Shown in pieces: positions 27,921-45,601 of a stretch of 64,000 nt of DNA. The notes beneath the pieces are model-generated. The model did not search any database, had not been told where the DNA came from, and saw nothing but the letters and a program-made list of their open reading frames with translations. Position 1 is the first letter of the stretch. Each line of letters starts with the position of its first letter. Source of the DNA: Klenkia marina (lineage in GTDB: Bacteria > Actinomycetota > Actinomycetes > Mycobacteriales > Geodermatophilaceae); NCBI RefSeq assembly GCF_900101025.1, contig NZ_FMUH01000005.1, positions 62,001 to 126,000 of the forward strand. Direction: 5' to 3'. The position numbers and the translations under genes are program-made.

Positions 27921-29024
27921 TCAGCCGTCGGTGCGGAAGCGGGCCAGCTTCTCCTCGTCGACCTCGATGCCGGTACCGGGCCCACCGCGCACGGCCATGC
28001 GACCCTCGGCGATGGTCAGCGGCTCGGTGAGCAGGTCGTCGGCGAGGTCCAGCCAGTTCGACAGCTCCGCCGGCAGGAGCGAGGTGCTGCGCCGTGACGC
28101 CCCGAACGCCAGGGCGCACGCCGAGCCGATCGAGCCGTCGACCTGGTTGCCCAGGGCGACCGGCACGCCCAGGCCCTCGCACAGCCCGGCCACCTGCGTC
28201 GAGTCGGTGAACCCGGTGCGGGCGGTCTTGATGCTCACCATCGTCGCCGAGCCGCCGAGCACCTCGCGGGTCACGTCGGCGGCGGTCGGTGCGCTCTCGT
28301 CGGCGACGTAGGGCACCGGGCAGCGCTGCACCAGCCACCGTCGGGCCAGTACGTCGTCGGCGGGGTCCAGCTCCTCGACCCGCGAGAGGCCGACGTCGTC
28401 GAGCATGCGCAGCGCCTGCGCCGCCTCGGCCGCCGTCCAGCCGCGGTTGCCGTCGAGGTAGAGCTCGACGTCCTCGCCGAGCCCGGCCCGCAGGGCCCGG
28501 ACGACGGCGACGTCGGCGTGCACCGGACGCCGGCCGACCTTCACCTTGAACGAGGTGATGCCGTAGGTGTCCCGCACCCGCTCGGCCTCGGCGACCATCG
28601 CGGCGGGCTCGTCGAACCCGACCATGTGGCTGACGGCGAGGGAGTCGGTGAACCCGCCGAGCAGCTCGTGCACCGGCCGGCCGCAGGTCTTCCCCCAGGC
28701 GTCCCACAGCGCCATGTCCAGGGCGGCCTTCGCGGTGGGGTTGCCGACGGTGCGCCCGACCCGGGCACGCACCTGCTCCCGGGCCAGCAGCGGCAGCCCG
28801 ACCACGGCCGGGGCGAACAGCTGCTCGACCACCGCCACGATCGAGGTCTGCGTCTCGCCGTAGGTGTAGGGCCGGGGCGGCGCCTCGGCCACCCCGGTCA
28901 CCCCGTCACTGGTGCGCACCCGCACCAGCACGTGGTCGGCCACCTCCACCTGCCCGCTGGCGAACCGCACGGGCTTGGTGAACGGGATCGAGAACGGGAT
29001 CGCCTCGACCGACTCGACCTTCAC
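27921..29024 (-). CDS. catB: Muconate cycloisomerase
   Basis: A 367-residue enolase-superfamily enzyme that turns cis,cis-muconate into muconolactone. The capping domain opens the chain; the barrel has the Lys160-x-Lys162 pair (FKVKVG), metal ligands Asp191 (YLDGN), Glu217 region (RVEELDP) and Asp242 (ADES), and Lys266 (SIKTARTG), the arrangement of muconate-lactonising enzymes. GTG at 29024 overlaps the stop of catC. Gene order catA-catC-catB supports the assignment over a generic mandelate-racemase relative. It is the last gene of the long leftward operon. Confidence 0.9.
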   Translation of the reverse strand: MKVESVEAIPFSIPFTKPVRFASGQVEVADHVLVRVRTSDGVTGVAEAPPRPYTYGETQTSIVAVVEQLFAPAVVGLPLLAREQVRARVGRTVGNPTAKAALDMALWDAWGKTCGRPVHELLGGFTDSLAVSHMVGFDEPAAMVAEAERVRDTYGITSFKVKVGRRPVHADVAVVRALRAGLGEDVELYLDGNRGWTAAEAAQALRMLDDVGLSRVEELDPADDVLARRWLVQRCPVPYVADESAPTAADVTREVLGGSATMVSIKTARTGFTDSTQVAGLCEGLGVPVALGNQVDGSIGSACALAFGASRRSTSLLPAELSNWLDLADDLLTEPLTIAEGRMAVRGGPGTGIEVDEEKLARFRTDG

Positions 29025-29308
29025 CGCTGCGCCGACAGGGCGGAGGGGTGCTCGGTCAGGGCCGTCACCTGCACCTGCATGTAGGGGAACAACGGCAGCG
29101 ACCACAGCAGGTCGTGCATCTCGGTCGCGTCGGCGACGTCGAAGACCGAGATGTTCGAGTACTGGCCGACGACGCGCCACAGGTGCACCCAGGTGCCCGC
29201 GCGCTGGAGCTCCAGCGCGCGGGCCTTCTCGGTGGCCACCAGCTCGGCCCGGACGTCGGCGTCCAGGTCGTGCGGGACGGCGACGTCCATGCGGACGTGG
29301 AACAGCAT
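29021..29308 (-). CDS. catC: Muconolactone delta-isomerase
   Basis: A 95-residue protein of typical length and sequence: MLFHVRMDVAVPHDLDADVR, WRVVGQYSNISVFDV and LPLFPYMQVQV. Converts muconolactone to 3-oxoadipate enol-lactone. Starts 3 bp after the catA stop and its stop overlaps the catB start. The following enzyme, enol-lactonase (pcaD), is not identified in the window. Confidence 0.93.
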   Translation of the reverse strand: MLFHVRMDVAVPHDLDADVRAELVATEKARALELQRAGTWVHLWRVVGQYSNISVFDVADATEMHDLLWSLPLFPYMQVQVTALTEHPSALSAQR

Positions 29309-29310
29309 CG

Positions 29311-30225
29311 TCAGGCGTTCTCGAGCACGAAGTCGTAGGTGACCTCGCGGGTGCCGTCGCCGACGTCCGTGGGGTCGAGGACCAGCTCGGGCTTGACCGC
29401 CTCGGCGACGTCGGAGTCCAGGTACTCGCCGCCGGCGAAGTAGAGCTGGGTGGTGACGGTGCGCCGACCCGGGGCGCTGACCAGCAGGTGCAGGTGGGCC
29501 GGGCGCCACGGGTGCCAGCCGGCGGCCGAGATCAGCGCGCCGGTGGGGCCGTCGGTGGGCACCTGGTAGGGCGCGGGCTGGATGGTGCGGATCTCGAAGC
29601 AGCCCTGCTCGTCGGCGGTGACCACGCCGCGCAGGTTCCCGGCCGGGATGTCGGGGGCGAAACCGGAGTAGTAGCCCTGCTCGTCGGCCTGCCAGATGTC
29701 GAGCACGGCACCGGGCACGGGAGCGCCGGTGGTGTCGGTGACCTGGCCGCGGAAGGCCAGCGGCGTGCCGGCCTCGTCGGGACGGGCGGGCAGGGTGGCG
29801 GGGGAGGAGAGCTGCACCTGGTCGGGCAGGTAGTAGGGGCCGAGGATGGTGCCGACGGTGCCCTCCTGGTGCTTCGCGGCGACGGCCTCGACGGCGTGCT
29901 CGACGAAGACGTCGAGGAACAGCGGCCACTCGCCGCCCTCACCGACGTCCATCAGCCACTTCTTGGCGGCCTGGAACTCGGGGTAGGTGACCTCGTGCTC
30001 GGTGATCACCGAGTGCACGGCGCCCAGCAGCGCGCGGGCAAGGGTGTCGACCCGGGCGGCGTCGGCGGTGAGGCCGGCGCTGGAGTACTGGTCGGTCGAG
30101 CGGAAGGACGCGCTGGCCGAGGCTCCGGAGTCCACTGCGGTGGGGCTGGCGGGGGAGTCGGGCGCGGTGGGGCCGGTCAGGGTGTCGACGGCGGCCTGGG
30201 CGACTGCCTCGTCGGCGGTGGGCAT
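29311..30225 (-). CDS. catA: Catechol 1,2-dioxygenase
   Basis: A 304-residue intradiol dioxygenase opening catechol to cis,cis-muconate. The iron ligands are visible: Tyr186 (GYYSGF), Tyr220 (PAPYQVP), His244 and His246 (RPAHLHL). The N-terminal linker domain is present, preceded by about 40 extra residues rich in Ser, Ala, Pro and Thr. ATG at 30225 with AGGAG upstream. It sits in the same operon as the iacA/iacG/iacI homologs, matching the fact that the iac pathway ends at catechol. Confidence 0.95.
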   Translation of the reverse strand: MPTADEAVAQAAVDTLTGPTAPDSPASPTAVDSGASASASFRSTDQYSSAGLTADAARVDTLARALLGAVHSVITEHEVTYPEFQAAKKWLMDVGEGGEWPLFLDVFVEHAVEAVAAKHQEGTVGTILGPYYLPDQVQLSSPATLPARPDEAGTPLAFRGQVTDTTGAPVPGAVLDIWQADEQGYYSGFAPDIPAGNLRGVVTADEQGCFEIRTIQPAPYQVPTDGPTGALISAAGWHPWRPAHLHLLVSAPGRRTVTTQLYFAGGEYLDSDVAEAVKPELVLDPTDVGDGTREVTYDFVLENA

Positions 30226-30277: not shown

Positions 30278-31402
30278 TCAGACCGTCGGAGCGGCCGCGC
30301 GGAGGTCGGCCACGAGCGCGGCCGCCGCGTCGACGGCCTCCCGCTGGTGCGGGAGCAGGTCGGCGCCGCCCTGGGCGGCCACGATCGGCAGCACCGGGTC
30401 GTCGAGCACGTGCACGCCCGCCAGCGCCGAGATCGTGGCCAGCCCGCAGAAGGGCACGTAGAGGGGGCTGTAGCCGCCCTCCTGCACCATGACCAGCCGG
30501 CCCTGCGGGCTGCTGGCTGCGGCGTCGCGGACGGTGTCGACGAGGTGGGCGAAACCGGTGCTGGTCACCATCTGCCGGGCCAGCGGGTCCATGGCCCCGG
30601 CGTCGAACCCGCTGGCCACGATGACCAGGTCGGGCTCGAACGCCGCCAGTGCCGGGGCGAGGACGGTCTCGGCCAGGTAGCCGTACGCGCCGTCGCCGCA
30701 CCCCGGTGGCAGCGGGACGTTCAGGTTGTAGCCGTGCCCGGCGCCCTCGCCGCGCTGGTGCAGGTGCCCGGAGTCCGGCGGGAAGCAGTTGGCCTGGTGC
30801 ACCGACAGGGTGAGCACCGACGGGTCCGCGGCGAAGATCGCCTGCGCGCCGTTGCCGTGGTGGACGTCCCAGTCCACGATCGCGACCCGCTCCACGCCGA
30901 GCTCGGCCTGGGCGTGCCGGGCGGCCACCGCCACGTTGTTGAAGATGCAGAAGCCCATGCCGGTCCCGGCGACGGCGTGGTGCCCGGCCGGGTTCACCAG
31001 CGCGTACCCGTCGTCGACCCGCCCGGAGACCACCGCCTCGGTCATCGCGATCGCCGATCCGGCCCCCAGGGCGGCCACCTCGTAGGCGCCGCGGCCGAAG
31101 GCGGAGAACCCGTCGCCGGCGTCCCCGCCCCGCGCGGACGCGCTCTCCGCCACGATCCGGTCGACGTGCTCGGGCGTGTGCACCCGCAGCAGCTCCTCGC
31201 GGGTCGCGGGGCGCCCCTCGATGCGGGTCAGGTGGTCGAGCAGCCCGGACACCGCCACCAGCTCGTGCATCCGGCGCTTGGTGTCGCTGTTGGCCAGGTG
31301 CGGCATCGGCGCGATGCCGATGGCGGGGTCGGCCGGGAACAGCGGCCCGCTGCCCGTGTCGTGCCAACCGAAGACCTCGTGCCACAGGTAGCCGGTGCTC
31401 AT
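30278..31402 (-). CDS. HDAC-like amidohydrolase (acetylpolyamine/class II type)
   Basis: A 374-residue zinc deacetylase of the arginase/deacetylase fold: PAGHHA, VDWDVHHGNG, ASGFDAGAMDPLA and EGGYSP hold the catalytic His pair, zinc ligands and active-site loop. Bacterial relatives remove acetyl or acyl groups from polyamines and other amides. Between an MFS transporter (ATGA overlap) and catA, it may deacylate an N-acyl aromatic or amine before catabolism, for instance N-acetylated amines; this is inferred from position. Such a gene is not part of the known iac set. Confidence 0.87.
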   Translation of the reverse strand: MSTGYLWHEVFGWHDTGSGPLFPADPAIGIAPMPHLANSDTKRRMHELVAVSGLLDHLTRIEGRPATREELLRVHTPEHVDRIVAESASARGGDAGDGFSAFGRGAYEVAALGAGSAIAMTEAVVSGRVDDGYALVNPAGHHAVAGTGMGFCIFNNVAVAARHAQAELGVERVAIVDWDVHHGNGAQAIFAADPSVLTLSVHQANCFPPDSGHLHQRGEGAGHGYNLNVPLPPGCGDGAYGYLAETVLAPALAAFEPDLVIVASGFDAGAMDPLARQMVTSTGFAHLVDTVRDAAASSPQGRLVMVQEGGYSPLYVPFCGLATISALAGVHVLDDPVLPIVAAQGGADLLPHQREAVDAAAALVADLRAAAPTV

Positions 31403-32754
31403 ACCGGTGCTCCGTCCTTCGAGGGGACCGTCGGCCGGGTCCGGCGGACGGGAGCGGTCTCCGGCAGCGCGAGCAGGCACAGCAGGGAGACCACGAGCAG
31501 GCCGGCCAGGTAGTAGCCGACGTTCCAGGCGTCGCCCGTGCCGCTGATGATGCGGTTGGCGACGAGGGGGGAGATGCCGCCACCGAGCACGCCGCCGAGG
31601 TGGTAGGCCAGACCCGCCCCGGACTGGCGCTGCTCGCGGGGGAACAGCTCGGCGAAGAAGCAGTAGAGCGGTCCGAACAGCACGCCGGTGGCGCTGAAGC
31701 CCAGCACCACGGCCAGAGCGACCGAACCCACGGTGCCCTGCCCGCTGAGCGGGAAGACGGCCAGGGCGGCCGGCACCGACAGCGCGGCGCCGAACATCAT
31801 CACCGGGCGTCGTCCCAGCCGGTCCGACAGGGCGGCCGACGCCACGTTCATCAGGGCGTGGCAGGCCAGCCCCAGCAGGGAGACGAGCACGACCGGACCG
31901 CGGGGGAGCCCGAGCCCCTCGGGGGCCGCGGCCGTCGCGTAGGACAGCATGAACGTGGTCAACGCGAAGGTGCTCGCGGTGAGGCCGATGTTGACCCCGG
32001 CGGCCAGCAGCACCGTGCGGCCGTTCGTGCGCAGCACCTGCGCCAGCGGCAGGGGCGCCGGTGCCCGGTCGGCGACGGCGGCGGCCTGGGCGGCCATCTC
32101 CTGGAACTCCGGGGTCTCGGCCACGTTGCGCCGCACCCAGAGCCCGACCACCAGCACGACCCCGCCGACCAGGAACGGCAACCGCCAGCCCCAGGTCACG
32201 ACGGTGTCCTCGGGCATCAGGAGCACCAGGGCGAACGCCCCGTTCGCCATCATGGCGCCGATCGGTGAGCCCATCGCGACGAAGGATCCGTAGAGGCCGC
32301 GCCGGTGCTCGGGTGCGTGCTCGGTGGCGAACACCGCGGCACCGACGTTCTCCCCGCCGCGGGCCAGGCCGTGCACCATGCGCAGGGCGATCAGCGTGAT
32401 CGGTGCCAGCGCGCCGACCACGGCGTAGGAGGGCAGCAACCCCATGGCGACGGTGGACAGCCCCATCGCGGAGAAGGACAGGACGAGGGAGTAGCGGCGC
32501 CCTCTGCGGTCGCCGAGCCAGCCGAAGAGCACGGCGCCCAGCGGGGCCATGAGGAAACCGATGGCGAAGGTGGCCAGGCTGATGAAGGTGCCGAACCAGG
32601 CGTCCCCGGTGACGAAGAAGACCTGGTTGAAGACCAGCGCAGCCGCGGTGCCGTAGATGGCGAAGTCGTAGAACTCCAACGCCGTGCCGAACCCGGCGGC
32701 GAAGGCGATCCGGGCCATGCCCGGCGGGCGTTCGTCGGCCCGTGCGGCCCTCAC
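31399..32754 (-). CDS. MFS transporter, metabolite:H+ symporter (MHS) type
   Basis: A 451-residue, 12-TM transporter with MHS hallmarks: AAGFGTALEFYDFAIYGTAA at the first TM, GWLGDRRGRRYSL after TM2, and ALRMVHGLARGGENVGAAV in TM4. MHS members take up organic acids such as shikimate, citrate, proline or aromatic acids. GTG at 32754 overlaps the stop of the SnoaL-like gene and its own stop overlaps the deacetylase start. Best candidate importer for indole-3-acetate or another acid in the pathway. Confidence 0.87.
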   Translation of the reverse strand: MRAARADERPPGMARIAFAAGFGTALEFYDFAIYGTAAALVFNQVFFVTGDAWFGTFISLATFAIGFLMAPLGAVLFGWLGDRRGRRYSLVLSFSAMGLSTVAMGLLPSYAVVGALAPITLIALRMVHGLARGGENVGAAVFATEHAPEHRRGLYGSFVAMGSPIGAMMANGAFALVLLMPEDTVVTWGWRLPFLVGGVVLVVGLWVRRNVAETPEFQEMAAQAAAVADRAPAPLPLAQVLRTNGRTVLLAAGVNIGLTASTFALTTFMLSYATAAAPEGLGLPRGPVVLVSLLGLACHALMNVASAALSDRLGRRPVMMFGAALSVPAALAVFPLSGQGTVGSVALAVVLGFSATGVLFGPLYCFFAELFPREQRQSGAGLAYHLGGVLGGGISPLVANRIISGTGDAWNVGYYLAGLLVVSLLCLLALPETAPVRRTRPTVPSKDGAPV

Positions 32755-33329
32755 GCCGGCCCCATGAGGACCGACTCCTGGATCGCCGAGCTCCACCACC
32801 GGTCGGGGAGCGCGGCGACGAAGAGGTTCTCGGTGCGGTAGCCGCAGATCCGCCAGCCCGCGTCGGTGGGCCGGAAGCGGACGTGCAACCGGCTGGAGCG
32901 CAGCTGGGCGGTGCCGTCGTCGTACATCCACGGCTGGAACTGCACCCAGTTGCCCTCGGCCCCCTCGGGTGTGGCGCGCAGCTGCTCGGCGGTCAGGTAG
33001 TGGGTGTTGAACACCTGCTCGGGGTTCGCCGCCGTGTAGAAGCGCAGCATGTGCGCGGCGACGGCGTCCCCACCGACGTGCCGGCCGAAGGCCTGGTTCT
33101 GGGTGGCACCCACGCCCTCCCACACGGCGTCGTCGGTGAACAGTTCGCCGATCGCGCGGGCGCGCTGGTGGTCGTCCATGCCCGGCTCGGGCAGCGGGCT
33201 GTCGCACAGGAACATGTAGCGGGCGAGCAGCCGGCGGGCCTCGGCCTCCGCGCGCAGGGCCTCGGTCGCCGCCCGCAGGGACGCCACCTCGCGGACGAGC
33301 TCGGCGACGACGGGGTCGGCGTGGCTCAC
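32751..33329 (-). CDS. iacI: SnoaL-like protein, IacI homolog candidate
   Basis: A 192-residue NTF2/SnoaL-fold protein with an N-terminal helix (VVAELVREVASLRAATEALR), LARYMFLCDS and a C-terminal beta sheet ending WRICGYRTENLFVA. The iac cluster of Pseudomonas putida includes IacI, a small protein of unclear enzymatic role; the fold and its coupling to iacA (GTGA overlap) support that name, but direct alignment is needed. It could otherwise be an orphan dioxygenase small-subunit-like protein. Confidence 0.65.
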   Translation of the reverse strand: MSHADPVVAELVREVASLRAATEALRAEAEARRLLARYMFLCDSPLPEPGMDDHQRARAIGELFTDDAVWEGVGATQNQAFGRHVGGDAVAAHMLRFYTAANPEQVFNTHYLTAEQLRATPEGAEGNWVQFQPWMYDDGTAQLRSSRLHVRFRPTDAGWRICGYRTENLFVAALPDRWWSSAIQESVLMGPA

Positions 33330-34486
33330 CGGAAGGCCGGCACGGTCGCAGGGAGGCCCATGAGCACGGCGCCCGCGGCGTCGTACATGGCCGGGCCGAG
33401 GAACGCGTGCTGGGTCGGCACCATCGAGTCGCGCACCAGCGGCTGCAACGGGTGGTCGCTGTAGATGGCGTTGGTGCCCGAGATGTCGAAGACCGCCCGC
33501 ACCGCCTCCGACCCGGCCCGTGCAGCGTGCGTGGCCGACAGCCGCAGCAGCGCGTTCTGCTCGTCGGTCACCGGGTCGCCGTCCAGCACGGTGGCGTAGG
33601 CCTCCTCGGCGGCCTCGTAGAAGAAGGCGCGGGCGCCGCGCAGCCGGGCCTCGGCCTCGGCGACGGCGGTGCGGAAGTACGCCCGGTCGGCGAGCTTGGG
33701 GGCACCGGTGGCGCCGGTGCCGCCGCCGCCGACCTCGCGCGCCCAGTCCAGTGCGGCCCGCCCGATGCCCAGGCCGACGACGGCCAGCACCTGCGCGGCG
33801 TAGGCCAGCGCCGGGTAGCGGTAGAGCGGCTCGTCGACGGTGGGCTGCCCGCCGCGGATGAAGGTGCGCTCCCGGGGCACCTCGACCCCGCGCACGACGA
33901 CGTCGTAGCTCCCGGTGCCGGCCATCCCGACGACGTCCCAGTCCTGGACGATCTCCACCTGGTCCGGTCGCAGCAGCGCGGTGCGCGGCTTGCCCTCGGT
34001 GGAGGGGTCACCGGGGATGCCGACCCCGAGCACGTCGGCGCCCATGCAGCCGCTGGCCCACTTCCACCGGCCCTCGACCAGGAAGCCGCGCTCAGTCGGC
34101 GTGGCCGGCTGGATCGGGAACAGCCCGCCGGCGAAGCAGAGGTCGGGGCCGTCGGCGAACAGCTCGGCCTGGGTCTCCAGCGGCAGCGCGGCCAGGTAGA
34201 CCTGGGCCGACCCGAAGCTGGCCACCCAGCCGGCAGAACCGTCGGCGGTGGCGATGCGCTCGACGACGCCCAGGAACTCCGCCGGCGGCAGCGCGTCGCC
34301 GCCGAACCGGCGGGGGGTGGCGGCGCGGTAGACCCCGGCGGCCTTGAACAGGTCGACGACGTCGCGCGGCACGTGGCCCAGGGCGCGGAACTCCTCGCGC
34401 CGCTCGACGACGGCGGCCAGGGCCACCTCGAGCGGGGTGGGCGGGAGGGTCAGGTCCGGCGAACCGGCGGACAGGGTGGCGGTCAT
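33326..34486 (-). CDS. iacA: Flavin-dependent monooxygenase of acyl-CoA dehydrogenase fold, IacA homolog
   Basis: A 386-residue protein with acyl-CoA-dehydrogenase architecture but the sequence style of two-component flavin monooxygenases (HpaB/DszC/IacA group): RAATPRRFGGDALPPAEFL, ATADGSAGWVASFG, GRWKWASGC, DWDVVGMAGTGSYDVVV. IacA carries out the first oxidation of indole-3-acetate, giving the 2-hydroxy product. It needs reduced flavin, and the flavin reductase gene is directly upstream (29 bp). ATG at 34486. With the rest of the iac homologs in the window the assignment is strong, though single-gene homology would also fit other indole or naphthoate monooxygenases. Confidence 0.82.
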   Translation of the reverse strand: MTATLSAGSPDLTLPPTPLEVALAAVVERREEFRALGHVPRDVVDLFKAAGVYRAATPRRFGGDALPPAEFLGVVERIATADGSAGWVASFGSAQVYLAALPLETQAELFADGPDLCFAGGLFPIQPATPTERGFLVEGRWKWASGCMGADVLGVGIPGDPSTEGKPRTALLRPDQVEIVQDWDVVGMAGTGSYDVVVRGVEVPRERTFIRGGQPTVDEPLYRYPALAYAAQVLAVVGLGIGRAALDWAREVGGGGTGATGAPKLADRAYFRTAVAEAEARLRGARAFFYEAAEEAYATVLDGDPVTDEQNALLRLSATHAARAGSEAVRAVFDISGTNAIYSDHPLQPLVRDSMVPTQHAFLGPAMYDAAGAVLMGLPATVPAFR

Positions 34487-34515: not shown

Positions 34516-35037
34516 TCAGGCGGTGGTGGCGGTGGGGCCGCCGAGCCGGTGGAACTGGCGCTGGAAGTAGACGAGCCCGGCCGTGTCGTCGCGGACGACC
34601 GTTCGCTCGACGGCGACGAAGAGCACCGAGTGCGAGCCGCGGACGGTGTGCCCGGTGATCCGGCCGACCAGGGCCACCAGGGCGTCGCGCAGGATCGGGA
34701 CCTCGGCGGTGTCGTGGTCCCAGATCTGCCAGCCGAAGCGCTCCTCCATCGGGATCTTCGTGGCGCCCGCGAAGTGCATCGCCAGCTCCTCGTGCTCGGC
34801 GCCGAGCACGTTCACGCAGATGCGCCCGTTGCGCCGGAAGATGTCGTGCGTGTAGCTGGACTGGTTGACGCAGACCAGCACGGTGGGCGGGCTGTCGGTC
34901 ACCGAGCAGACCGCGCTGACGGTGATCCCGGCGCGGCCTCCCGGCCCGTCGGTGGTGACCACGTTGACCGCGGCGGACAGGTGGGCCATCGCACCGCGGA
35001 ACGCCTGCTGCTCGGGGGTCACGGTCGCGGTGCTCAT
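34516..35037 (-). CDS. iacG: Flavin reductase, IacG homolog
   Basis: A 173-residue flavin-reductase-like (HpaC) protein: VNVVTTDGPGGRAGITVSAV, SVTDSPPTVLVCVN and FGWQIWDHDTAEVP. It uses NAD(P)H to reduce FMN or FAD for the monooxygenase encoded next. ATG at 35037 overlaps the permease stop (ATGA). Adjacent to iacA, consistent with a two-component system. Confidence 0.85.
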   Translation of the reverse strand: MSTATVTPEQQAFRGAMAHLSAAVNVVTTDGPGGRAGITVSAVCSVTDSPPTVLVCVNQSSYTHDIFRRNGRICVNVLGAEHEELAMHFAGATKIPMEERFGWQIWDHDTAEVPILRDALVALVGRITGHTVRGSHSVLFVAVERTVVRDDTAGLVYFQRQFHRLGGPTATTA

Positions 35038-37621: not shown

Positions 37622-37661
37622 CTCCTCGCACCGCCGGCGACGACGCCGGCGGTGCGAGGAG
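37622..37661 (+). promoter_or_regulatory. Strong leader hairpin overlapping iacB ribosome site
   Basis: Two perfect 18-bp arms (37622-37639 and 37644-37661) around an ACGA tetraloop. The right arm ends in GAGGAG, part of the ribosome site of iacB (GTG at 37671), and there is no T-run, so it is not a classical terminator. It may limit translation or act as an attenuator or RNA-stability element for the rightward operon. Confidence 0.7.
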
Positions 37662-37670
37662 AGGACCCCC

Positions 37671-38042
37671 GTGAGCGACTACCGCGACAGCGACCGGAGC
37701 AGCATCCGGGTGCTGTTCTGCATCGGCGTGCGTGACGCCTTCTTCGACGCCGCCGCCCCCGAGCGCGCCGCGCTGGTGACCGCCACCCGCGAGGCCTTCG
37801 CCGACCTGACCGGCCGGTTCGGCCTGCGGGTGCTGGGCACCATGGACGACGACGAGGTGATGGTCGGCCCGTCCACCGGCTTCCCGTGGACGGCCTACAT
37901 CCTGGCCGACGTCCCCGACTACGCCACGGTCGCGGCGGTCTGCTCGATCATCCGCGACCAGGGCGTCGGCGACGTCCAGCTGTGGAAGTACTACACCATC
38001 GAGGCCCGCCTGGGCCGTGGCCTGTTCTTCGGCAATGAGTGA
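37671..38042 (+). CDS. iacB: IacB homolog, small protein of indole-acetate operon
   Basis: A 123-residue soluble protein with no clear enzymatic motif; features are IRVLFCIGVRDAFFDAAAPE, GRFGLRVLGTMDDDEVMVG and VQLWKYYTIEARLGRGLFFG. In iac clusters iacB is a small gene of unsettled function that accompanies the monooxygenase and dioxygenase genes. GTG at 37671 has AGGAGAGGA upstream, partly locked in a hairpin. Its stop overlaps the start of the dehydrogenase gene by 8 bases. Assignment rests on size and context. Confidence 0.65.
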   Translation: MSDYRDSDRSSIRVLFCIGVRDAFFDAAAPERAALVTATREAFADLTGRFGLRVLGTMDDDEVMVGPSTGFPWTAYILADVPDYATVAAVCSIIRDQGVGDVQLWKYYTIEARLGRGLFFGNE

Positions 38043-38815: not shown

Positions 38816-40120
38816 ATGACCATCGAGCTGACCCCGGACGCCCTCGACGTCCACGGCGAGACGCCCGCCGACCTGGTGCTGCCCGACCGGGTCGCCGGCC
38901 GGCTGTACACCGACCCCGACCTGTTCGAGCTGGAGATGACCCGCATCTTCGAGCGCTCGTGGGTGTGGGTGGCGCACGAGAGCGAGGTGCCGAAGCCCGG
39001 GTCGTTCAAGACCACGCACGTGGGCCGGCAGCCGGTGATCGTGGCGCGCAACCGCAAGGGCGAGATCAACACGCTGCTCAACCGGTGCCGGCACCGCGGC
39101 GCCAGCGTCTGCGAGCAGCCCAGCGGTCAGGCCAACGGGTTCACCTGCCCGTACCACGCGTGGTCCTACAGCCTGGACGGTCAGCTGCGCGGCATCCCGT
39201 ACCCCGAGGGCTACGAGGGCGTGCTGGCCAAGGGCGACATCACCCTGGGCAAGCTGCGCACCGAGAGCTACGGCGCCATGGTCTTCGCCACCGCCGACCC
39301 CGACGCCGAGCCGCTCACCGACTTCCTCGGCGACGTCAAGCTCTGGATCGACCGCTTCTTCGGCCTCGGTGGCGGCTACCCGGTGAAGGTGCTCGGCCGG
39401 CACCGGTTCCGCTTCCGCGGCAACTGGAAGATCCAGCTGGAGAACACCACCGACGGCTACCACTTCCCGATCGTGCACCGGTCGTGGATGGCCTCGGTCG
39501 ACGCCGAGACCGCCGAAATGATGTCGTTCATGACCGACCCGACGTGCACCACGCACGACCTGGGCCACGGCCACAGCGTCATGCAGATGGTGCCCACCCA
39601 CTCCGACCTCTCGGCCGACGACGGCACCGAGCCGCTGCAGGCCCGCTTCGACGACCTGGTCGCCGAGCTCAAGGGCACCGGTCTGGACGACGCCGCGGTG
39701 CGCAAGCTCGTGCACGCCATGCACGGCACCGGCTTCAACCTCAACCTGTTCCCGAACGTGTCGATGTCGGCGGCGTTCCTGCGGGTGCTGCGGCCGATCT
39801 CGGTCGACGAGACCGAGATCGAGCACATCGCGCTGGGCCCCGACGGCCCGCCCGAGGTGGTCGACCCGGTGAACCGGGCCAAGCTGCGCATCCACGAGCA
39901 CTTCCAGGGCCCGTTCGGGTTCGGCACCCCCGACGACGCCGAGGGCTGGGACCGGGTGCAGCGCGGGGCCCAGGCCGCCCCGACGATGCCGATCCTGGTC
40001 AACCGCGGCCTGGCCCGCGAGACCCCGAGCCCCGAGGGCTGGCCCACCTCGCACGTGACCGACGAGACCGGCATGCGCACGGCGTACGCGCAGTGGAAGG
40101 CGATGATGGGCGATGACTGA
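38816..40120 (+). CDS. iacC: Rieske dioxygenase large subunit, IacC homolog
   Basis: A 434-residue ring-hydroxylating oxygenase alpha subunit. The Rieske cluster ligands are Cys91, His93, Cys111 and His114 (CRHRG...CPYHAW). The mononuclear iron site shows Asp213, His216 and His221 (DGYHFPIVH), the same spacing as in naphthalene dioxygenase. In iac systems the IacCD enzyme acts late and leads to catechol. ATG at 38816 has CAGGAG six bases before it. Stop overlaps the small-subunit start. Confidence 0.88.
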   Translation: MTIELTPDALDVHGETPADLVLPDRVAGRLYTDPDLFELEMTRIFERSWVWVAHESEVPKPGSFKTTHVGRQPVIVARNRKGEINTLLNRCRHRGASVCEQPSGQANGFTCPYHAWSYSLDGQLRGIPYPEGYEGVLAKGDITLGKLRTESYGAMVFATADPDAEPLTDFLGDVKLWIDRFFGLGGGYPVKVLGRHRFRFRGNWKIQLENTTDGYHFPIVHRSWMASVDAETAEMMSFMTDPTCTTHDLGHGHSVMQMVPTHSDLSADDGTEPLQARFDDLVAELKGTGLDDAAVRKLVHAMHGTGFNLNLFPNVSMSAAFLRVLRPISVDETEIEHIALGPDGPPEVVDPVNRAKLRIHEHFQGPFGFGTPDDAEGWDRVQRGAQAAPTMPILVNRGLARETPSPEGWPTSHVTDETGMRTAYAQWKAMMGDD

Positions 40121-40634
40121 GACCACCTCGCTGCGCACGGCGGTCGCCGGCGTGCCGCTCACCGACCCCCGGGTCGTGCGGGCGATCGAGCTGGTGTGGC
40201 GCGAGGCCGAGCTGCTCGACCGGGCCGACTACACCGCCTGGGACGCCCTGTACGCCGAGGACGGCACGTACGTCGTCCCGATCGACGGCAGCGTCGAGGA
40301 GTTCGACGACGTCCTCAACATGGTCTACGACGACACGCGCATGCGGCGGATGCGCATCGTGCGGATGACCGAGGGCCACGCGCTGGCCGCCGTCGACGCC
40401 GCCCGCACCGTGCGCACCGTCTCGCGCTTCGTCCCCGCGGTCGTCTCCGACGACGAGGTCGTGCTGCGCTCGGCGCAGGTGCTGGTCGCCTACAAGCGCG
40501 GCCGGCACGACCTGTGGGTGGGCGACGTCGAGCACCGCATCCGGTTGTCCGAGACCGGCGACCGGATCGTGCGCAAGGTGGTGCGGCTGGTGGACAGCGA
40601 GGGCGCCCCGCCCGCCGCGGGGTTCCTGCTGTGA
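40113..40634 (+). CDS. iacD: Rieske dioxygenase small subunit, IacD homolog
   Basis: A 173-residue beta subunit (NTF2 fold): VVRAIELVWREAELLDRADY, WDALYAEDGTYVVPI, VYDDTRMRRMRIVRM and FVPAVVSDDEVVLRSAQVL. Structural partner of IacC in an alpha/beta oligomer. ATG overlaps the alpha gene by 8 bases; its own stop overlaps the reductase start. Confidence 0.88.
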   Translation: MTETTSLRTAVAGVPLTDPRVVRAIELVWREAELLDRADYTAWDALYAEDGTYVVPIDGSVEEFDDVLNMVYDDTRMRRMRIVRMTEGHALAAVDAARTVRTVSRFVPAVVSDDEVVLRSAQVLVAYKRGRHDLWVGDVEHRIRLSETGDRIVRKVVRLVDSEGAPPAAGFLL

Positions 40635-41645: not shown

Positions 41646-43565
41646 GTGCACCACCCCCTGTTCGACGCCCTGACCGCCGACGAGATCGCCCGCACCACCA
41701 AGGCCGTGCGGGACGACGGCGCCGTCGGCGTCCGGCCCGCGTTCGCCGCCGTCTTCACCGAGGAGCCGGACAAGGCGCTGCTGCGCGCCGGCGAGGACGT
41801 CCCCCGCCGCGCCCGCGCGATGGTGCTGGACAAGGACACCGGCGCCTCGTGGGACGTCGTGGTCGACCTGACCACCGACGCCGTGGTCGAGACCCACCTG
41901 CGCACGGCGGGCACCGTGGCCATGCTCGGTTCGGAGGTCGAGCTGATGACCGAGCTGGTCAAGGCCGACGCCCGCTACGTCGCCGCCCTGGCCGAGCGCG
42001 GCATCACCGACCTGTCCACGGTGCAGATCGACCCGTGGGGGCTGGGCAACCGCGAGGAGTACGGCGTCGAGGGACGACGGCTGATCGGCGGCACCTCGTT
42101 CCTGCGGCACTTCCCCGAGGACAACGGCTACGCGCACCCGATCGAGGGCGTCGTGGCGATCGTCGACGTGACCCAGGGCGAGGTGCTCGACGTCCTCGAC
42201 CACGGTGTGCGGCCGCTCAACGAGCAGGACATGCTCTGGACCGCCGAGGCCAACGGGCCCATGCGCACCGACGTCGCCCCGCTGGAGATCCACCAGCCCC
42301 AGGGCGTCGGGTTCACCGTCGACGGCACGGTGCTGCACTGGCAGAAGTGGCGGTTCCGCATCGGCATGCACCCGCTCGAGGGGCTCGTGCTGCACGGCGT
42401 CGAGTACCGCGACGGCGACCGGTGGCGCTCGGTCGCCCACCGGCTCTCGCTGTCGGAGATGGTCGTGCCCTACGGCGACCCCAGCCCCGAGCACTGGTGG
42501 CGCAGCGCTTTCGACGCCGGCGAGTACGGCATGGGGAACATGGCCAACTCGCTGCGGCTGGGCTGCGACTGCAAGGGCGAGATCGTCTACCTCGACGCCG
42601 TGCTGAGCGACGAGGACGGCGAGCCGCGCACCATCGACCAGGCGATCTGCATCCACGAGGAGGACGCCGGGATCCTCTGGAAGCACACCGACTGGGTGAC
42701 CGGTGCGGTCGACGTCCGCCGATCTCGGCGCCTGGTGGTCAGCGCGATCTCCACGGTCGGCAACTACCACTACGGCTTCTACTGGAACTTCTACCAGGAC
42801 GCCTCGATCGAGGTGGAGATCAAGCTGCTGGGCATCGTGCAGCCCCGCGCGGTCGCCGACGGCGAGGTCACCCCGCACGCCAGCCCGGTGGGGCCCAACC
42901 TCGTCGCTACCTACCACCAGCACCTGTTCGGCTTCCGGCTGGACATGGAGGTCGACGGCTGGCAGAACACCGTGGTGCAGAACGACGCGCACCCGGTGCC
43001 GGTGGGCGAGGCCAACCCGCACGGCAACGCCATCGGCGTCACCCGCACCGTCATCGAGCGCGAGCACGACGGGGACGGGCTGACCGACCCGCACCGCAGC
43101 CGCAGCTGGACGGTCACCAACCAGCACGTGCGCAACGCCTGGGGCTCGGCGGTGGGCTACAAGCTGCTGCCCGGCTGGGCGTCGGCGACGATCCTGGCCG
43201 ACCCGTCGGCGACCGTCGCCCGGCGGGCCGGGTTCGCCGCCAAGAACATCTGGGTCACCCCCTACCGGCCCGACGAGCTGCGCGCCGCCGGCGAGGCCCC
43301 GCACCAGGACCGCGCCGGCTCCGGCCTCCCGGCCTGGACGGCGGGCAACCGCGCCGTCGCCGACACCGACGTCGTCCTCTGGCACACCGTCGGCGTCACC
43401 CACGTGCCGCGCGCCGAGGACTGGCCGGTCATGCCGATGGAGAAGGCCGGTTTCCACCTGCTGCCGGTGAACTTCTTCGACCGCAACCCGGCGATGGACG
43501 TCCCGGCCGACCCGGTCCGCGGGCACGGCACGCCCGGCACCGACGGCTGCTGCTCGGGGCACTGA
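41646..43565 (+). CDS. Copper-containing primary amine oxidase (amine oxidase 2)
   Basis: A 639-residue paralog of amine oxidase 1. Catalytic Asp290 (FDAGEYG), topaquinone precursor Tyr374, and copper ligands His424, His426 and His586 (THVPRAEDWP) are all present. The residue after Tyr374 is His (NYHY) where the family consensus N-Y-D/E has an acid and where paralog 1 has Asp. It ends with a Cys-Cys pair (DGCCSGH). GTG at 41646 has GAGAAGAGGA upstream. Inside the rightward iac operon, it probably converts an aromatic amine such as tryptamine to indole-acetaldehyde, feeding indole-3-acetate; inferred from context. Confidence 0.93.
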   Translation: MHHPLFDALTADEIARTTKAVRDDGAVGVRPAFAAVFTEEPDKALLRAGEDVPRRARAMVLDKDTGASWDVVVDLTTDAVVETHLRTAGTVAMLGSEVELMTELVKADARYVAALAERGITDLSTVQIDPWGLGNREEYGVEGRRLIGGTSFLRHFPEDNGYAHPIEGVVAIVDVTQGEVLDVLDHGVRPLNEQDMLWTAEANGPMRTDVAPLEIHQPQGVGFTVDGTVLHWQKWRFRIGMHPLEGLVLHGVEYRDGDRWRSVAHRLSLSEMVVPYGDPSPEHWWRSAFDAGEYGMGNMANSLRLGCDCKGEIVYLDAVLSDEDGEPRTIDQAICIHEEDAGILWKHTDWVTGAVDVRRSRRLVVSAISTVGNYHYGFYWNFYQDASIEVEIKLLGIVQPRAVADGEVTPHASPVGPNLVATYHQHLFGFRLDMEVDGWQNTVVQNDAHPVPVGEANPHGNAIGVTRTVIEREHDGDGLTDPHRSRSWTVTNQHVRNAWGSAVGYKLLPGWASATILADPSATVARRAGFAAKNIWVTPYRPDELRAAGEAPHQDRAGSGLPAWTAGNRAVADTDVVLWHTVGVTHVPRAEDWPVMPMEKAGFHLLPVNFFDRNPAMDVPADPVRGHGTPGTDGCCSGH

Positions 43566-43566
43566 C

Positions 43567-44082
43567 GTGGCGACGGCCATGGCGGTGGCGTCGCTGACGC
43601 CGGCCGCGGTCTGCACCGGCTGCTACCTCACCCACCGCCGGCGCACCGAGGCCCTGACCGGGGCGGCGATGGCGTTGATGCTGCTGGCCATGGTCGACAC
43701 CATGCTGCTGGGCGGTCGACTGCTCGCGCCGCCGGCCTGGGGCGCCCTGCTGGTCGCCGGCGCCGTCGTGGTCCAGGTCGACCGGTGGCGGCGGGGGAGC
43801 GGCGCCGACCCGGTGCTCCACCTGGCCGCGATGGGAGCGCTGCTGCTGCTGCCCGCTCTGGGCGGATCGGCAGGGCACCACCACGTGGCCGGCGACGGCA
43901 TGACCGGTGCGATGGCTTCCGGCCCGGCCGGGTGGGTGCTCCTCGCCGTCCTGGCCGTCGTCGTCGCGCACACCGGGCATGCCTGGTTGCGGGTGCTGCG
44001 CACCCGGGACACCACGACCCGCGTGGAGGTCGGCACCGCCGCCGCCTCCGTGGTCGCCATGGCCGCGATGGCCCTGGCGTGA
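43567..44082 (+). CDS. Small His/Met-rich membrane protein paired with amine oxidase 2
   Basis: A 171-residue protein with about five hydrophobic segments. It starts one base after the oxidase stop. Features: CxxC at Cys16-Cys19 (CTGC), Met-rich ALTGAAMALMLLAMVDTM, and GHHHVAGDGMTGAM (residues 103-116). It shares VAGDGM and the CxxC with the small membrane protein after amine oxidase 1. Overall pattern resembles DUF5134 proteins. A copper-supply or membrane-anchoring role for the oxidase is my inference. Confidence 0.72.
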   Translation: MATAMAVASLTPAAVCTGCYLTHRRRTEALTGAAMALMLLAMVDTMLLGGRLLAPPAWGALLVAGAVVVQVDRWRRGSGADPVLHLAAMGALLLLPALGGSAGHHHVAGDGMTGAMASGPAGWVLLAVLAVVVAHTGHAWLRVLRTRDTTTRVEVGTAAASVVAMAAMALA

Positions 44083-44102
44083 GCGACAGCCGGGAGGACC
44101 CG

Positions 44103-44366
44103 ATGACCGACACCCGCATGACGCTGACCTGCTACACCGACACCCACGGCTGGGGCTGGAAGCACGTCGACCTCTTCACCCACGACGCCGAGGGCAACGA
44201 GCTCAACTGGGTGCATTGGCTGGTGCCGCGCGACGGCCCGGACGCCGCCGACGAGGTGACCGCCCGGGTCGAGCCGCTGCTGCGCCGCACCTCGGGATGG
44301 CGGCACTCGGTGGGGGCCAGCGGCATCGAGTTCTGGGAGGCCGACGTGGTCTGGGACGCCCCGTGA
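44103..44366 (+). CDS. 87-residue protein of unknown function in iac operon
   Basis: A short soluble protein: MTLTCYTDTHGWGWKHVDLF, ELNWVHWLVPRDGP and GIEFWEADVVWDAP, rich in Trp (8 of 87). No family recognised. ATG at 44103 has GGGAGGACC upstream; the stop overlaps the amidase start (GTGA), so it is translated with the amidase. Trp richness and position hint at a partner or binding protein for an indole compound, unproven. Confidence 0.7.
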   Translation: MTDTRMTLTCYTDTHGWGWKHVDLFTHDAEGNELNWVHWLVPRDGPDAADEVTARVEPLLRRTSGWRHSVGASGIEFWEADVVWDAP

Positions 44367-45601
44367 GCCGGTACGCGCCGTGGTCGCTGGTCGACCTCGT
44401 GGCCGACCTGCGGACCGGCCGCACCACCCCCGCCGACGCCGTCGCCCGGTCGGTGGACCGCATCGCCGCCACCGAGGCGCAGGTGCGGGCGTGGGTGGGG
44501 GAGGTGCGCGCGCCCGACCCGGTGGCCACCGGTCCGCTCGGCGGCGTGCCGATGGGGATCAAGGACATCGTCGACCTGGCCGGGTGGCCCACCCGGTGCG
44601 GCTCGGTGCTGCGCGCCGACGACGGCCCGGTGGACGTCGACGCCGAGGTCGTCACCGCCTGGCGCGCGGCCGGCGGGCTGCCGCTGGGCAAGACGGTCAC
44701 CACCGAGTTCGCCTACTTCGCCCCCGGTCCGACCGACAACCCCGCCGCGCCCGGCCACACGCCCGGTGGGTCCTCCAGCGGCTCGGCCGCAGCCGTCGCC
44801 GCCGGGCAGGTCCCGCTCGCGACCGGCTCGCAGACCGCCGGGTCGGTGACCCGCCCGGCCGCCTACTGCGGCGTCGCCTCGCTGGTGCTCTCCCGCGGCG
44901 GGATCGGCGACGGCGGCGTGGTCGGGCTGGCCCCCAGCCTGGACAGCCACGGGATCCTCGCCGCCGGCGTCGCCGACGTCGCGCTGGCCTGGGCGGCGCT
45001 GCTCGGGGTCGCGGTCCCGGCGCCCGTGCGGCCCCGGGTGCTGGTGTGGGGCGGGCAGTCCCTCGGCCCGGTCGACCCGGCCATGGCCGCGGCGCTCGAC
45101 CGGGCCGAGGCTGCGCTGCGCGGTGCCGGGGCCACGACGACCCGGCTGACCGACGACCGCTGGGTGCTCGACGCCGCGGCGGCTCACCCGGTGGTCATGG
45201 CCTACGAGGCCGCCGGCACCCGCGCCGCCGAGCTGGCCCGCGCCGACCGCCTCAGCGAGCCCCTGGCCGCCCTGCTCCGCATCGGCGCCGCCACCACCGG
45301 GGACGCCTACGCGGCGGCCCGAGCCGCCGTCGCCGCGTCCGCCGACCGCCTCGGTGAGCTGCTGGCCGGCCACGACGTCCTGCTGTGCCCGGCGGCCCCG
45401 GGTCCGGCGCCCGCCGGCCACGCCGCGACGGGGGACCCGCTGCACAGCCGGCCGTGGCAGGCGATCGGCGCCCCGCAGGTCGGGGTGCCGGCGCTGCGGG
45501 CACCCGACGGGAGGCCGCTCGGCCTGCAGGTCGTGGGCCGTCCGGGTGCCGACGACGCCGCGCTGGCCGCCGCGGCCTGGGTCGGGCGCCACCTGTCCTG
45601 A
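44363..45601 (+). CDS. iacH: Amidase-signature hydrolase, IacH homolog
   Basis: A 412-residue amidase with the Ser-cisSer-Lys triad: Lys67 (GIKDIVD), cis-Ser137 (PGGSSSGSAAAV) and nucleophile Ser161 (GSQTAGSVTRPA). IacH is the amidase-type enzyme of iac clusters, proposed to open an oxidised indole lactam intermediate; indole-3-acetamide is another reasonable substrate. GTG at 44363 overlaps the previous stop. Last gene of the rightward operon, followed by a perfect 16-bp hairpin. Confidence 0.83.
   Translation: MSRYAPWSLVDLVADLRTGRTTPADAVARSVDRIAATEAQVRAWVGEVRAPDPVATGPLGGVPMGIKDIVDLAGWPTRCGSVLRADDGPVDVDAEVVTAWRAAGGLPLGKTVTTEFAYFAPGPTDNPAAPGHTPGGSSSGSAAAVAAGQVPLATGSQTAGSVTRPAAYCGVASLVLSRGGIGDGGVVGLAPSLDSHGILAAGVADVALAWAALLGVAVPAPVRPRVLVWGGQSLGPVDPAMAAALDRAEAALRGAGATTTRLTDDRWVLDAAAAHPVVMAYEAAGTRAAELARADRLSEPLAALLRIGAATTGDAYAAARAAVAASADRLGELLAGHDVLLCPAAPGPAPAGHAATGDPLHSRPWQAIGAPQVGVPALRAPDGRPLGLQVVGRPGADDAALAAAAWVGRHLS

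What the first reader, a model, noticed from the sequence alone, without database searches (positions are those of the whole stretch)
27921..45601. Complete, re-ordered indole-3-acetate (auxin) degradation set fused to catABC in an actinobacterium
Seen: two divergent operons hold an acyl-CoA-dehydrogenase-fold monooxygenase plus flavin reductase, SnoaL protein, small IacB-like protein, SDR, Rieske alpha and beta, reductase and amidase. Known: these are the nine classes iacA-I of Pseudomonas putida 1290 and relatives, which convert indole-3-acetate to catechol. Here the genes are split A/G/I leftward and B/E/C/D/F/H rightward, and catA, catC and catB are in the leftward operon, so the whole route to 3-oxoadipate enol-lactone is under one control. 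Inference: the organism degrades auxin.
Basis: partly seen in the sequence, partly recalled or inferred. Interest (0 to 1): 0.9.

Follow-up and report, generated by a model that had tools for sequence, protein, structure and literature searches.

The report
Auxin breakdown island with amine feed-in
A bacterium carries a gene island predicted to break down the plant hormone auxin to ordinary cell fuel, a known kind of pathway, but here joined to extra enzymes that look able to feed in related indole amines such as tryptamine and perhaps serotonin.

Summary
Confirmed: 27921-45601 holds homologs of all nine iac classes in two divergent operons, with catABC in the leftward one. The window's IacA lies inside the iac IacA clade. 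The headline novelty falls away: auxin-degradation loci in Actinobacteria and predicted iac clusters in Nocardiaceae are in print (PMC9613470, PMC12462448), and catABC lies beside iac in 20 of 80 related loci.

I read a funnel: N-acyl indole-ethylamine -> amine -> aldehyde -> indole-acetate -> Iac -> catechol -> 3-oxoadipate. A copper amine oxidase recurs in 14 of 80 loci; the hydroxyquinol dioxygenase in 9 of 80 (about 0.4 expected) and in 6 of 13 proteobacterial loci.

Boldest reading (0.3): 5-oxyindoles (serotonin, melatonin) also enter, since 5-hydroxyindole-acetate treated like IAA would give hydroxyquinol; genome checks were mixed. All functions are inferred from sequence. New variant of a known kind.

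The parts
27921..29024 (-). catB, muconate cycloisomerase
   Evidence: MR_MLE domains; 54-67% to CatB in 13 of 22 related loci with a CatB match
29021..29308 (-). catC, muconolactone delta-isomerase
   Evidence: TIGR03221 137.8 bits, over cut-off 130.6
29311..30225 (-). catA, catechol 1,2-dioxygenase (actinobacterial type)
   Evidence: TIGR02438 400.4 bits, cut-off 404.4
30278..31402 (-). class II HDAC-type amidohydrolase; candidate N-acyl-amine deacylase
   Evidence: PF00850 278.8 bits; PDB best 8szt 1e-124, HDAC-like amidohydrolase 1zz0 8e-123, dimethoate and propanil hydrolases about 1e-93; metal-site motifs kept; overlaps the MFS gene by 4 nt
31399..32718 (-). MFS metabolite:H+ symporter, candidate importer
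   Evidence: TIGR00883; homologs in 21 of 80 iac loci
32751..33329 (-). iacI, SnoaL/NTF2-like
   Evidence: PF13577; 72 of 80 loci
33326..34486 (-). iacA, acyl-CoA-dehydrogenase-fold monooxygenase
   Evidence: inside the iac IacA clade
34516..35037 (-). iacG, flavin reductase
   Evidence: PF01613; HpaC 204.3 bits, cut-off 205.95
35034..36488 (-). amino-acid/amine (APC) permease
   Evidence: PF00324; homologs in 20 of 80 iac loci, 13 of them with a copper amine oxidase
36616..37542 (-). LysR regulator, divergent; no MarR seen in the locus
   Evidence: PF00126/PF03466; nearest 38% in Leucobacter and Cryobacterium iac loci
37555..37661 (.). divergent control region: 8-bp palindrome 37555-37573 and perfect 18-bp hairpin 37622-37661 just before iacB
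   Evidence: fold z-score -5.7
37671..38042 (+). iacB
   Evidence: 51% to an annotated IacB
38035..38775 (+). iacE, SDR dehydrogenase
   Evidence: PF13561; NNAG and YxxxK motifs
38816..40120 (+). iacC, Rieske oxygenase alpha subunit
   Evidence: PF00355/PF00848; Rieske and iron motifs; up to 84% in Nocardia
40113..40634 (+). iacD, Rieske oxygenase beta subunit
   Evidence: PF00866
40667..41605 (+). iacF, PDR/VanB-type reductase
   Evidence: Fer2 and reductase matches; 75 of 80 loci
41646..43565 (+). copper amine oxidase (AGAO-like), NYHY cofactor motif
   Evidence: NF008559 808 bits, cut-off 651; aligned to phenylethylamine oxidase; homologs in 14 of 80 iac loci
43579..44082 (+). small hydrophobic, probably membrane protein, unknown
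   Evidence: gene call; no Pfam hit
44103..44366 (+). orf87, conserved iac-linked protein of unknown function
   Evidence: 76 of 80 loci; 28 invariant columns in 44 sequences; confident model, no PDB fold match at E 0.001
44363..45601 (+). iacH, amidase
   Evidence: PF01425; GGSSSG motif
45659..47107 (-). aldehyde dehydrogenase, candidate indole-acetaldehyde dehydrogenase
   Evidence: PF00171; 73-75% to ALDHs in two Arthrobacter iac loci that also hold a copper amine oxidase
47269..48333 (-). maleylacetate reductase
   Evidence: PDB maleylacetate reductase 3hl0 4e-103
48330..49232 (-). hydroxyquinol-type 1,2-dioxygenase
   Evidence: PDB 8r2x 8e-99 and 1tmx 1.5e-76, against catechol dioxygenases 9e-40; overlaps maleylacetate reductase by 4 nt
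49356..50183 (-). IclR/PcaR-type regulator
   Evidence: TIGR02431 282.5 bits, cut-off 284.75

Best explanation
A horizontally acquired catabolic island that destroys auxin and its amine precursors. Core (well supported by homology): IacA with IacG oxidises indole-3-acetate to 2-oxindole-acetate, IacE (perhaps with IacB) gives 3-hydroxy-2-oxindole-acetate, and IacC/D/F with H and I lead to catechol; CatA, CatB and CatC carry catechol to 3-oxoadipate enol-lactone, and PcaD, PcaI and a thiolase encoded elsewhere finish it. Feed-in (inferred): the HDAC-type amidohydrolase removes an acyl group from N-acyl indole-ethylamines, the copper amine oxidase turns the amine into indole-acetaldehyde, and the ALDH makes the acid that Iac needs; the APC and MFS permeases import substrates. 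The LysR protein probably controls both divergent operons. The adjoining hydroxyquinol dioxygenase and maleylacetate reductase probably serve ring-hydroxylated relatives.
For: All nine Iac classes and CatABC are present in tight operons. IacA sits in the iac clade; 55 of 80 related loci hold all nine classes. Tryptamine was not oxidised by Caballeronia IacA (PMC7225977 section 3.3, read), so an amine oxidase would be needed to use it. The copper amine oxidase lies inside the iac operon here and recurs in 14 of 80 loci, 13 with an APC permease; two Arthrobacter loci add an ALDH 73-75% identical to the window's. An unrelated amine enzyme (tyramine oxidase subunit B or class III aminotransferase) lies near iac in Martelella, Gemmobacter, Shinella and Sagittula. 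An HDAC-type protein also lies next to iac in Martelella AD-3. Lower pathway: PcaD two copies over cut-off, PcaI one. No IacA ortholog in 8 other genomes of the genus.
Against: No activity is shown for any protein. The HDAC-type gene is in 0 of 80 actinobacterial iac loci, so its link to indoles rests on this operon and one plasmid. Its relatives also lie near histidine decarboxylase, glutamine synthetase or oxidoreductase/ALDH genes, so another amide is possible. The amine oxidase has an unusual NYHY motif, and its best characterised relatives are phenylethylamine oxidases. The ALDH is on the other strand from the amine oxidase operon. PcaF matches are below the curated cut-off (515 of 597 bits).
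Confidence: 0.6

Rival explanations
1. A plain iac plus catABC auxin pathway; the HDAC-type enzyme, amine oxidase, ALDH and hydroxyquinol genes are unrelated aromatic or amine genes that happen to share the island.
For: iac with catABC and without the extras is common (20 of 80 loci have catABC). The window's left part carries other catabolic genes, and a second copper amine oxidase lies at 3616-5520. HDAC is absent from all 80 related loci.
Against: The extras sit tightly inside the operons (4-nt overlaps HDAC-MFS and IacG-APC; IacF-CuAO gap 40 nt), and amine oxidase, permease and ALDH recur with iac in other genera and, through non-homologous enzymes, in another phylum.
Confidence: 0.25
2. 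The locus is a 5-oxyindole (serotonin / N-acetylserotonin / melatonin-type) pathway as much as an auxin pathway: 5-hydroxyindole-acetate passes through Iac to hydroxyquinol, which the adjacent dioxygenase and maleylacetate reductase convert to 3-oxoadipate.
For: Chemistry: if IAA to catechol keeps C7a and C3a as the diol carbons, a 5-hydroxyl ends as 1,2,4-trihydroxybenzene (own deduction). The dioxygenase is hydroxyquinol-type. It lies within 10 kb of iacC in 9 of 80 loci against about 0.38 expected, and in 6 of 13 proteobacterial iac loci at 59-63% identity to the window's. In Sagittula an aminotransferase, maleylacetate reductase and the dioxygenase are adjacent genes about 5 kb from the iac genes, with no cat genes in the 28 kb seen. 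Ten flanking ORFs from seven of the nine linked actinobacterial loci showed no phenol- or resorcinol-hydroxylase domain (not every ORF was scanned).
Against: Not one experiment; 5-hydroxyindoles were not among the compounds tested with IacA in PMC7225977. Catabolic genes cluster anyway. A CatA-type enzyme is present in 6 of 9 linked and 9 of 11 unlinked genomes checked. Of the three linked genomes without one, two (Leucobacter) have near-cut-off catechol 2,3-dioxygenases (313 and 307 of 320 bits) and lack a close IacA; the two unlinked ones without CatA have catechol 2,3-dioxygenase over the cut-off. The six ORFs scanned in the two Azospirillum loci include no amine enzyme. The window's dioxygenase is closest (up to 72%) to copies that lie outside the iac loci fetched from their genomes.
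Confidence: 0.3
3. The Iac-like set has drifted to a different indole (indole-3-propionate, indole-acetonitrile, skatole or indole) rather than IAA.
For: Caballeronia IacA/IacE accept many indoles (PMC7225977); a nitrile hydratase gene set lies 6 kb left of catB (20817-21957); some relatives lack A, B or E.
Against: Window IacA is sister to 42 actinobacterial rows, 38 of them beside IacB; the full A-I set is kept.
Confidence: 0.1

Closest known systems
iac locus of Pseudomonas putida 1290 type (here compared with annotated copies in Acinetobacter NCu2D-2 and Klebsiella variicola plasmids)
   Same: All nine classes iacA-I; catechol pathway genes beside it in Acinetobacter
   Different: Split into divergent operons A/G/I and B/E/C/D/F/H, LysR instead of MarR, plus HDAC-type, copper amine oxidase, orf87; the P. 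putida 1290 proteins themselves were not compared
Actinobacterial iac loci (Nocardia, Amycolatopsis, Pseudonocardia, Streptomyces, Rhodococcus, Arthrobacter and others; 80 loci)
   Same: Same nine classes in 55 of 80, orf87 in 76, catABC in 20, copper amine oxidase in 14
   Different: The window's gene order is not among the printed orders; HDAC in none
Martelella sp. AD-3 plasmid iac locus
   Same: HDAC-type amidohydrolase next to iac, with ALDH, hydroxyquinol-type dioxygenase and an amine oxidase subunit
   Different: Alphaproteobacterium; tyramine oxidase B instead of copper amine oxidase; MarR regulator; ABC and TRAP transporters
Phenylethylamine oxidase (AGAO, copper amine oxidase)
   Same: Full-length alignment, HQH histidines kept
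   Different: Cofactor motif NYHY instead of NYDY; among the copies compared shared only with one amine oxidase in the Nocardia alni iac locus
HDAC-like amidohydrolases (HDAH; dimethoate and propanil hydrolases)
   Same: Full-length match and metal-site motifs
   Different: Substrate unknown; lies in an iac operon
iad-like loci (Variovorax)
   Same: Share homologs of iacC-F (PMC9613470)
   Different: No iad marker found among the scanned genes; iac markers A, B, I present

Membership tests
iac-like IAA degradation locus (markers as in PMC9613470) | iacA, iacB and iacI present | tested here: met
iac-like IAA degradation locus | adjacent iacC and iacD homologs | tested here: met
   38816-40120 and 40113-40634, overlapping
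iac-like IAA degradation locus | remaining classes E, F, G, H present | tested here: met
iac-like IAA degradation locus | MarR-type IacR regulator (usual, not universal; LysR in P. phytofirmans PsJN) | tested here: not met
   LysR at 36616-37542; no MarR among the proteins scanned from 25.0 to 51.2 kb
iac-like IAA degradation locus | conversion of IAA to catechol | not testable with these tools
   needs enzyme or growth assays
iad-like locus | iorB/iotA (indolepyruvate ferredoxin oxidoreductase) genes | tested here: not met
   none among the proteins scanned from 25.0 to 51.2 kb (the 90-aa call at 27640-27912 was not scanned)
copper amine oxidase (primary-amine oxidase) | family match over curated cut-off | tested here: met
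   NF008559 808 bits, cut-off 651
copper amine oxidase (primary-amine oxidase) | topaquinone motif NY[DE]Y (motif recalled) | tested here: not met
   NYHY at 373-376; NYDY in the other amine oxidases compared except one Nocardia copy
HDAC-like amidohydrolase | domain match and zinc-site residues (residues recalled) | tested here: met
   PF00850 278.8 bits, cut-off 27.9; GHHA, DWDVHHG, GFD, GGY
hydroxyquinol 1,2-dioxygenase | closer to solved hydroxyquinol than catechol dioxygenases | tested here: met
   8e-99 and 1.5e-76 against 9e-40
hydroxyquinol 1,2-dioxygenase | activity on 1,2,4-trihydroxybenzene | not testable with these tools
   needs an enzyme assay

The most novel reading that the evidence does not exclude
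A cross-phylum class of iac islands is not an auxin pathway only but a general indole-ethylamine pathway: deacylase, amine oxidase (or transaminase) and ALDH make indole-acetates from tryptamine, serotonin, N-acetylserotonin or melatonin, and the Iac enzymes send plain indoles to catechol and 5-oxyindoles to hydroxyquinol, each with its own ring-cleavage branch in the same island. In the window both branches are present and meet at 3-oxoadipate. It would be a genetic route for bacterial mineralisation of serotonin-type molecules.
Probability: 0.3. Interest if true: 0.75.

Novelty: new variant of a known kind. Interest (0 to 1): 0.5.

Why it matters
Iac loci are studied as auxin sinks that change root growth. 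If many of them also take in tryptamine, serotonin or melatonin-type amines, their substrates and their effect on plant (and animal) hosts are wider than thought, and the unresolved step from 3-hydroxy-2-oxindole-acetate to a diphenol gets a built-in test: a 5-hydroxyl should mark the product as hydroxyquinol. The conserved orf87 protein, in 76 of 80 actinobacterial loci examined and in no named family found here, is a candidate missing component of that poorly understood part of the pathway.

Tried and rejected
The M20 deacylase plus LysR pair left of catB (25013-27357) was considered as an auxin-conjugate hydrolase belonging to the island. Rejected: it is 87-90% identical to a gene pair on other contigs than the 51362 block in two genomes of the genus in which no IacA ortholog was found, so it is taken as native to the genus.

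The nitrile hydratase genes at 20817-21957 were considered as a source of indole-acetamide for IacH. Left open: they are 6 kb outside the island and no co-occurrence was tested.

Anthranilate or benzoate as substrate was rejected: the Rieske alpha scores 203 of 672 bits on the anthranilate model and 201 of 781 on the benzoate model.

Catechol as substrate of 48330-49232 was rejected on PDB scores. The idea that a flanking hydroxylase supplies hydroxyquinol was checked: Pfam of ten flanking ORFs from seven of the nine linked loci (L059, L064, L067, L072, L092, L102, L103) gave two PAS kinases, a LuxR-type and an HxlR-type regulator, an MFS and a DctP transport protein, an alpha/beta hydrolase, an FAD_binding_4 protein, an aminotransferase and, in L064, an acyl-CoA-dehydrogenase-fold protein; none is a typical phenol or resorcinol hydroxylase. 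L070 and L098, and many ORFs of the seven, were not scanned.

CatA absence as a test of the hydroxyquinol reading gave mixed results, told under the rivals. The fold of orf87 matched nothing in the PDB at E 0.001 or better. Sigma-70-type promoter and terminator scans of the control region found nothing.

Literature: ten searches. No listed title or abstract start joins iac with tryptamine or an amine oxidase, or iac with serotonin or hydroxyquinol; one search was badly posed (a truncated word under whole-word matching), and the listings were capped. Only open-licence PMC papers are covered. The nearest is PMC7764795 (passages): in C. [quoted passage not shown] the passages do not speak of iac. 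PMC11434297 (passages) gave nothing of use.


Full report
What is there. The window is part of a 4.22-Mb, 14-contig genome (G000:C12:62001-126000) with 73-79% G+C in 4-kb steps. Gene calling with a codon model trained on the window, plus Pfam and NCBIfam scans, gives two divergent gene runs around a 128-nt gap. Leftward: LysR, APC permease, IacG, IacA, IacI, MFS symporter, HDAC-type amidohydrolase, CatA, CatC, CatB. Rightward: IacB, IacE, IacC, IacD, IacF, copper amine oxidase, small membrane-like protein, orf87, IacH. Within the runs the spacing is -8 to +52 nt, with a 127-nt gap only between APC and LysR; HDAC-MFS, IacI-IacA, IacG-APC, CatB-CatC and orf87-IacH overlap by 4 nt. To the right, leftward again, lie an aldehyde dehydrogenase, a maleylacetate reductase, a hydroxyquinol-type dioxygenase (the last two overlapping by 4 nt) and an IclR-type regulator.

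Is it iac? tblastn of the window proteins against an annotated iac cluster of Acinetobacter sp. NCu2D-2 (L022, where IacB is annotated by name) matches all nine classes: A 45%, B 51%, C 54%, D 35%, E 37%, F 37%, G 25% (99 of 173 residues), H 30%, I 27%. A maximum-likelihood tree of 105 IacA homologs plus the window places the window in a 92-row group (98/99) that holds all 82 rows lying next to IacB, apart from 14 non-iac homologs; five rows of that group have no iac neighbours and four have IacC only. The window is sister to 42 actinobacterial rows (99/96) (the tree warns of long branches, mostly among the outgroup rows). Motifs for the Rieske centre, mononuclear iron, SDR and amidase active sites are kept. 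The marker genes that Conway et al. 2022 (PMC9613470; section 8 read, passages) use for iac-like loci, iacA, iacB and iacI, are all present.

Is that new? No. [quoted passage not shown] rhizoSMASH (PMC12462448, passages) predicts iac clusters in Nocardiaceae. By tblastn with fixed score limits, 55 of 80 hold all nine classes, 20 hold catA, catB and catC, and 18 hold all twelve. Loci reach at most 10 kb to each side and several are cut by contig ends, so these are lower bounds. Gene order varies between loci.

What is unusual. (1) A copper amine oxidase inside the rightward operon. Homologs lie in 14 of the 80 loci, 13 of these with an APC permease. The window protein and one of two amine oxidases in the Nocardia alni locus (65% identical) share a deviant cofactor motif, NYHY; the other copies compared, including the second copy in the window at 3616-5520, have NYDY. 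(2) An ALDH 73-75% identical to ALDHs in two Arthrobacter iac loci that also hold a copper amine oxidase. (3) A class II HDAC-type amidohydrolase, in none of the 80 loci at E 0.001 and in none of 8 other genomes of the genus at E 1e-40, yet next to a complete iac cluster on a Martelella plasmid (44%). Its solved relatives include general HDAC-like amidohydrolases and amide-pesticide hydrolases; other relatives lie near histidine decarboxylase, glutamine synthetase or oxidoreductase/ALDH genes. (4) A LysR regulator in place of the usual MarR; P. phytofirmans PsJN is a published exception of the same sort.

Reading of the amine genes. Caballeronia IacA did not oxidise tryptamine (PMC7225977 section 3.3), so a strain that uses tryptamine through Iac needs to deaminate it first. 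Copper amine oxidase plus ALDH does that on paper; the HDAC-type enzyme would open N-acylated amines. That an amine enzyme is a functional partner of iac is supported by replacement: on alphaproteobacterial plasmids the neighbour is instead tyramine oxidase subunit B (Martelella, Gemmobacter, Shinella) or a class III aminotransferase (Sagittula). In the five annotated proteobacterial iac loci without the hydroxyquinol genes (L022, L023, L150, L154, L156; L154 is cut by the record end) I saw no gene annotated as amine oxidase or class III aminotransferase; two unannotated ones (L019, L151) were not checked for this.

Hydroxyquinol. The dioxygenase at 48330-49232 matches hydroxyquinol dioxygenases far better than catechol dioxygenases, and 47269-48333 is a maleylacetate reductase by its PDB matches. 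Copies of the dioxygenase lie near iacC in 9 of 80 loci (8 with the reductase). From 65 copies in 48 of the 80 genomes (my choice of 48 included all nine positives) about 0.38 would be expected in 80 loci by chance; clustering of catabolic genes in general is not corrected for. Among 13 proteobacterial iac loci read (of 28 plasmid records of any phylum with an IacB match; Martelella was picked because of its HDAC), six carry a copy 59-63% identical to the window's and five of them the reductase, each with an ALDH. Of the six, four have an amine-deaminating enzyme; in the two Azospirillum loci the six ORFs scanned were chemoreceptors, regulators and transport or outer-membrane-type proteins. 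The chemical link is my own deduction: if Iac turns IAA to catechol through C7a and C3a, 5-hydroxyindole-acetate should give hydroxyquinol. This would explain why hydroxyquinol genes keep company with amine enzymes and iac.

Checks on that idea gave mixed results. A CatA-type match (50% identity or more) is present in 6 of 9 linked and 9 of 11 unlinked actinobacterial iac genomes looked at (20 genomes of my choice). Of the three linked genomes without one, Corynebacterium lemuris, which has iacA-F, also has no catechol 2,3-dioxygenase near the cut-off (198 of 320 bits); the two Leucobacter genomes have copies just under it (313, 307) and show no IacA match in the locus, L064 having a different acyl-CoA-dehydrogenase-fold protein in its place. 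The two unlinked genomes without CatA have a catechol 2,3-dioxygenase over the cut-off. The window's own dioxygenase is closest to copies that lie outside the fetched iac loci (up to 72%), so it was probably recruited separately. I put the 5-oxyindole reading at 0.3.

Origin. No IacA ortholog was found in 8 other genomes of the genus (best E 2e-23, 31% identity), and the genome has one PF00848 match. In two relatives (G001, G002) the block from 51362 rightward is conserved (72-100% per protein), but no island gene was matched in the stretch fetched on its other side; in G002 homologs of 23755-24990 and of 27640-27912 follow about 4.4 and 8.8 kb beyond it. The island thus occupies roughly 27.9-51.2 kb. 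Best relatives differ by gene: IacC in Nocardia, IacB and IacE in Leucobacter/Cryobacterium, IacG and ALDH in Arthrobacter, amine oxidase in Nocardia alni, which suggests a mosaic. The lower pathway is elsewhere in the genome: PcaD twice and PcaI once over cut-off, PcaF-like thiolases below it.

Shown and inferred. Shown by computation: gene content, operon spacing, homology, clade membership, co-occurrence counts. Inferred: every catalytic step in this organism, the funnel, regulation by LysR, and the 5-oxyindole extension.

Noticed in passing
44103-44366 (orf87): An 87-aa protein with no Pfam match at E 0.001 and no NCBIfam match is found in 76 of 80 actinobacterial iac loci, usually near iacH (same strand in 64 of 71 loci with both), and in none of 13 proteobacterial iac loci compared. 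28 invariant columns in 44 sequences; confident model (pLDDT 93.7); no PDB fold match at E 0.001.
   Followed up: yes
37555-37661: Between the divergent operons: a perfect 8-bp palindrome (3-nt spacer) and a perfect 18-bp hairpin (4-nt loop) that ends 10 nt before the iacB start and covers a purine-rich stretch that may be its ribosome-binding site; RNA fold z-score -5.7. Possible operator and translational or attenuation control.
   Followed up: partly
41646-43565 and L047:18978-20879: Copper amine oxidases with NYHY instead of the usual NY[DE]Y cofactor motif (usual motif recalled), both inside iac loci.
   Followed up: partly
L064, L065, L070: Leucobacter and Cryobacterium loci keep IacB/E/C/D/F but show no IacA match; L064 has a different acyl-CoA-dehydrogenase-fold protein (16003-17211) and a class III aminotransferase (12895-14358).
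   Followed up: partly
L035, L038, L041, L043, L069, L104: Loci with iacC/D/F and orf87 but no match to iacA, iacB or iacE, three of them (L038, L041, L043) with a copper amine oxidase: the Rieske module may serve another pathway.
   Followed up: no
20817-21957: Nitrile hydratase genes with the beta subunit split into two ORFs, followed by a 2OG-Fe(II) oxygenase gene.
   Followed up: no
2144-5520: A second copper amine oxidase (3616-5520, NYDY motif) behind a gene whose start resembles the window's APC permease by eye (not scanned), at the left end of the window.
   Followed up: no
L140, L141, L020: IacA-IacG homolog pairs (IacA 54-55% to the window) on Paraburkholderia and Caballeronia plasmids without IacB within 3 kb, suggesting an IacA-like oxygenase used outside iac; the plasmid of L020 also carries iac genes farther off.
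   Followed up: no
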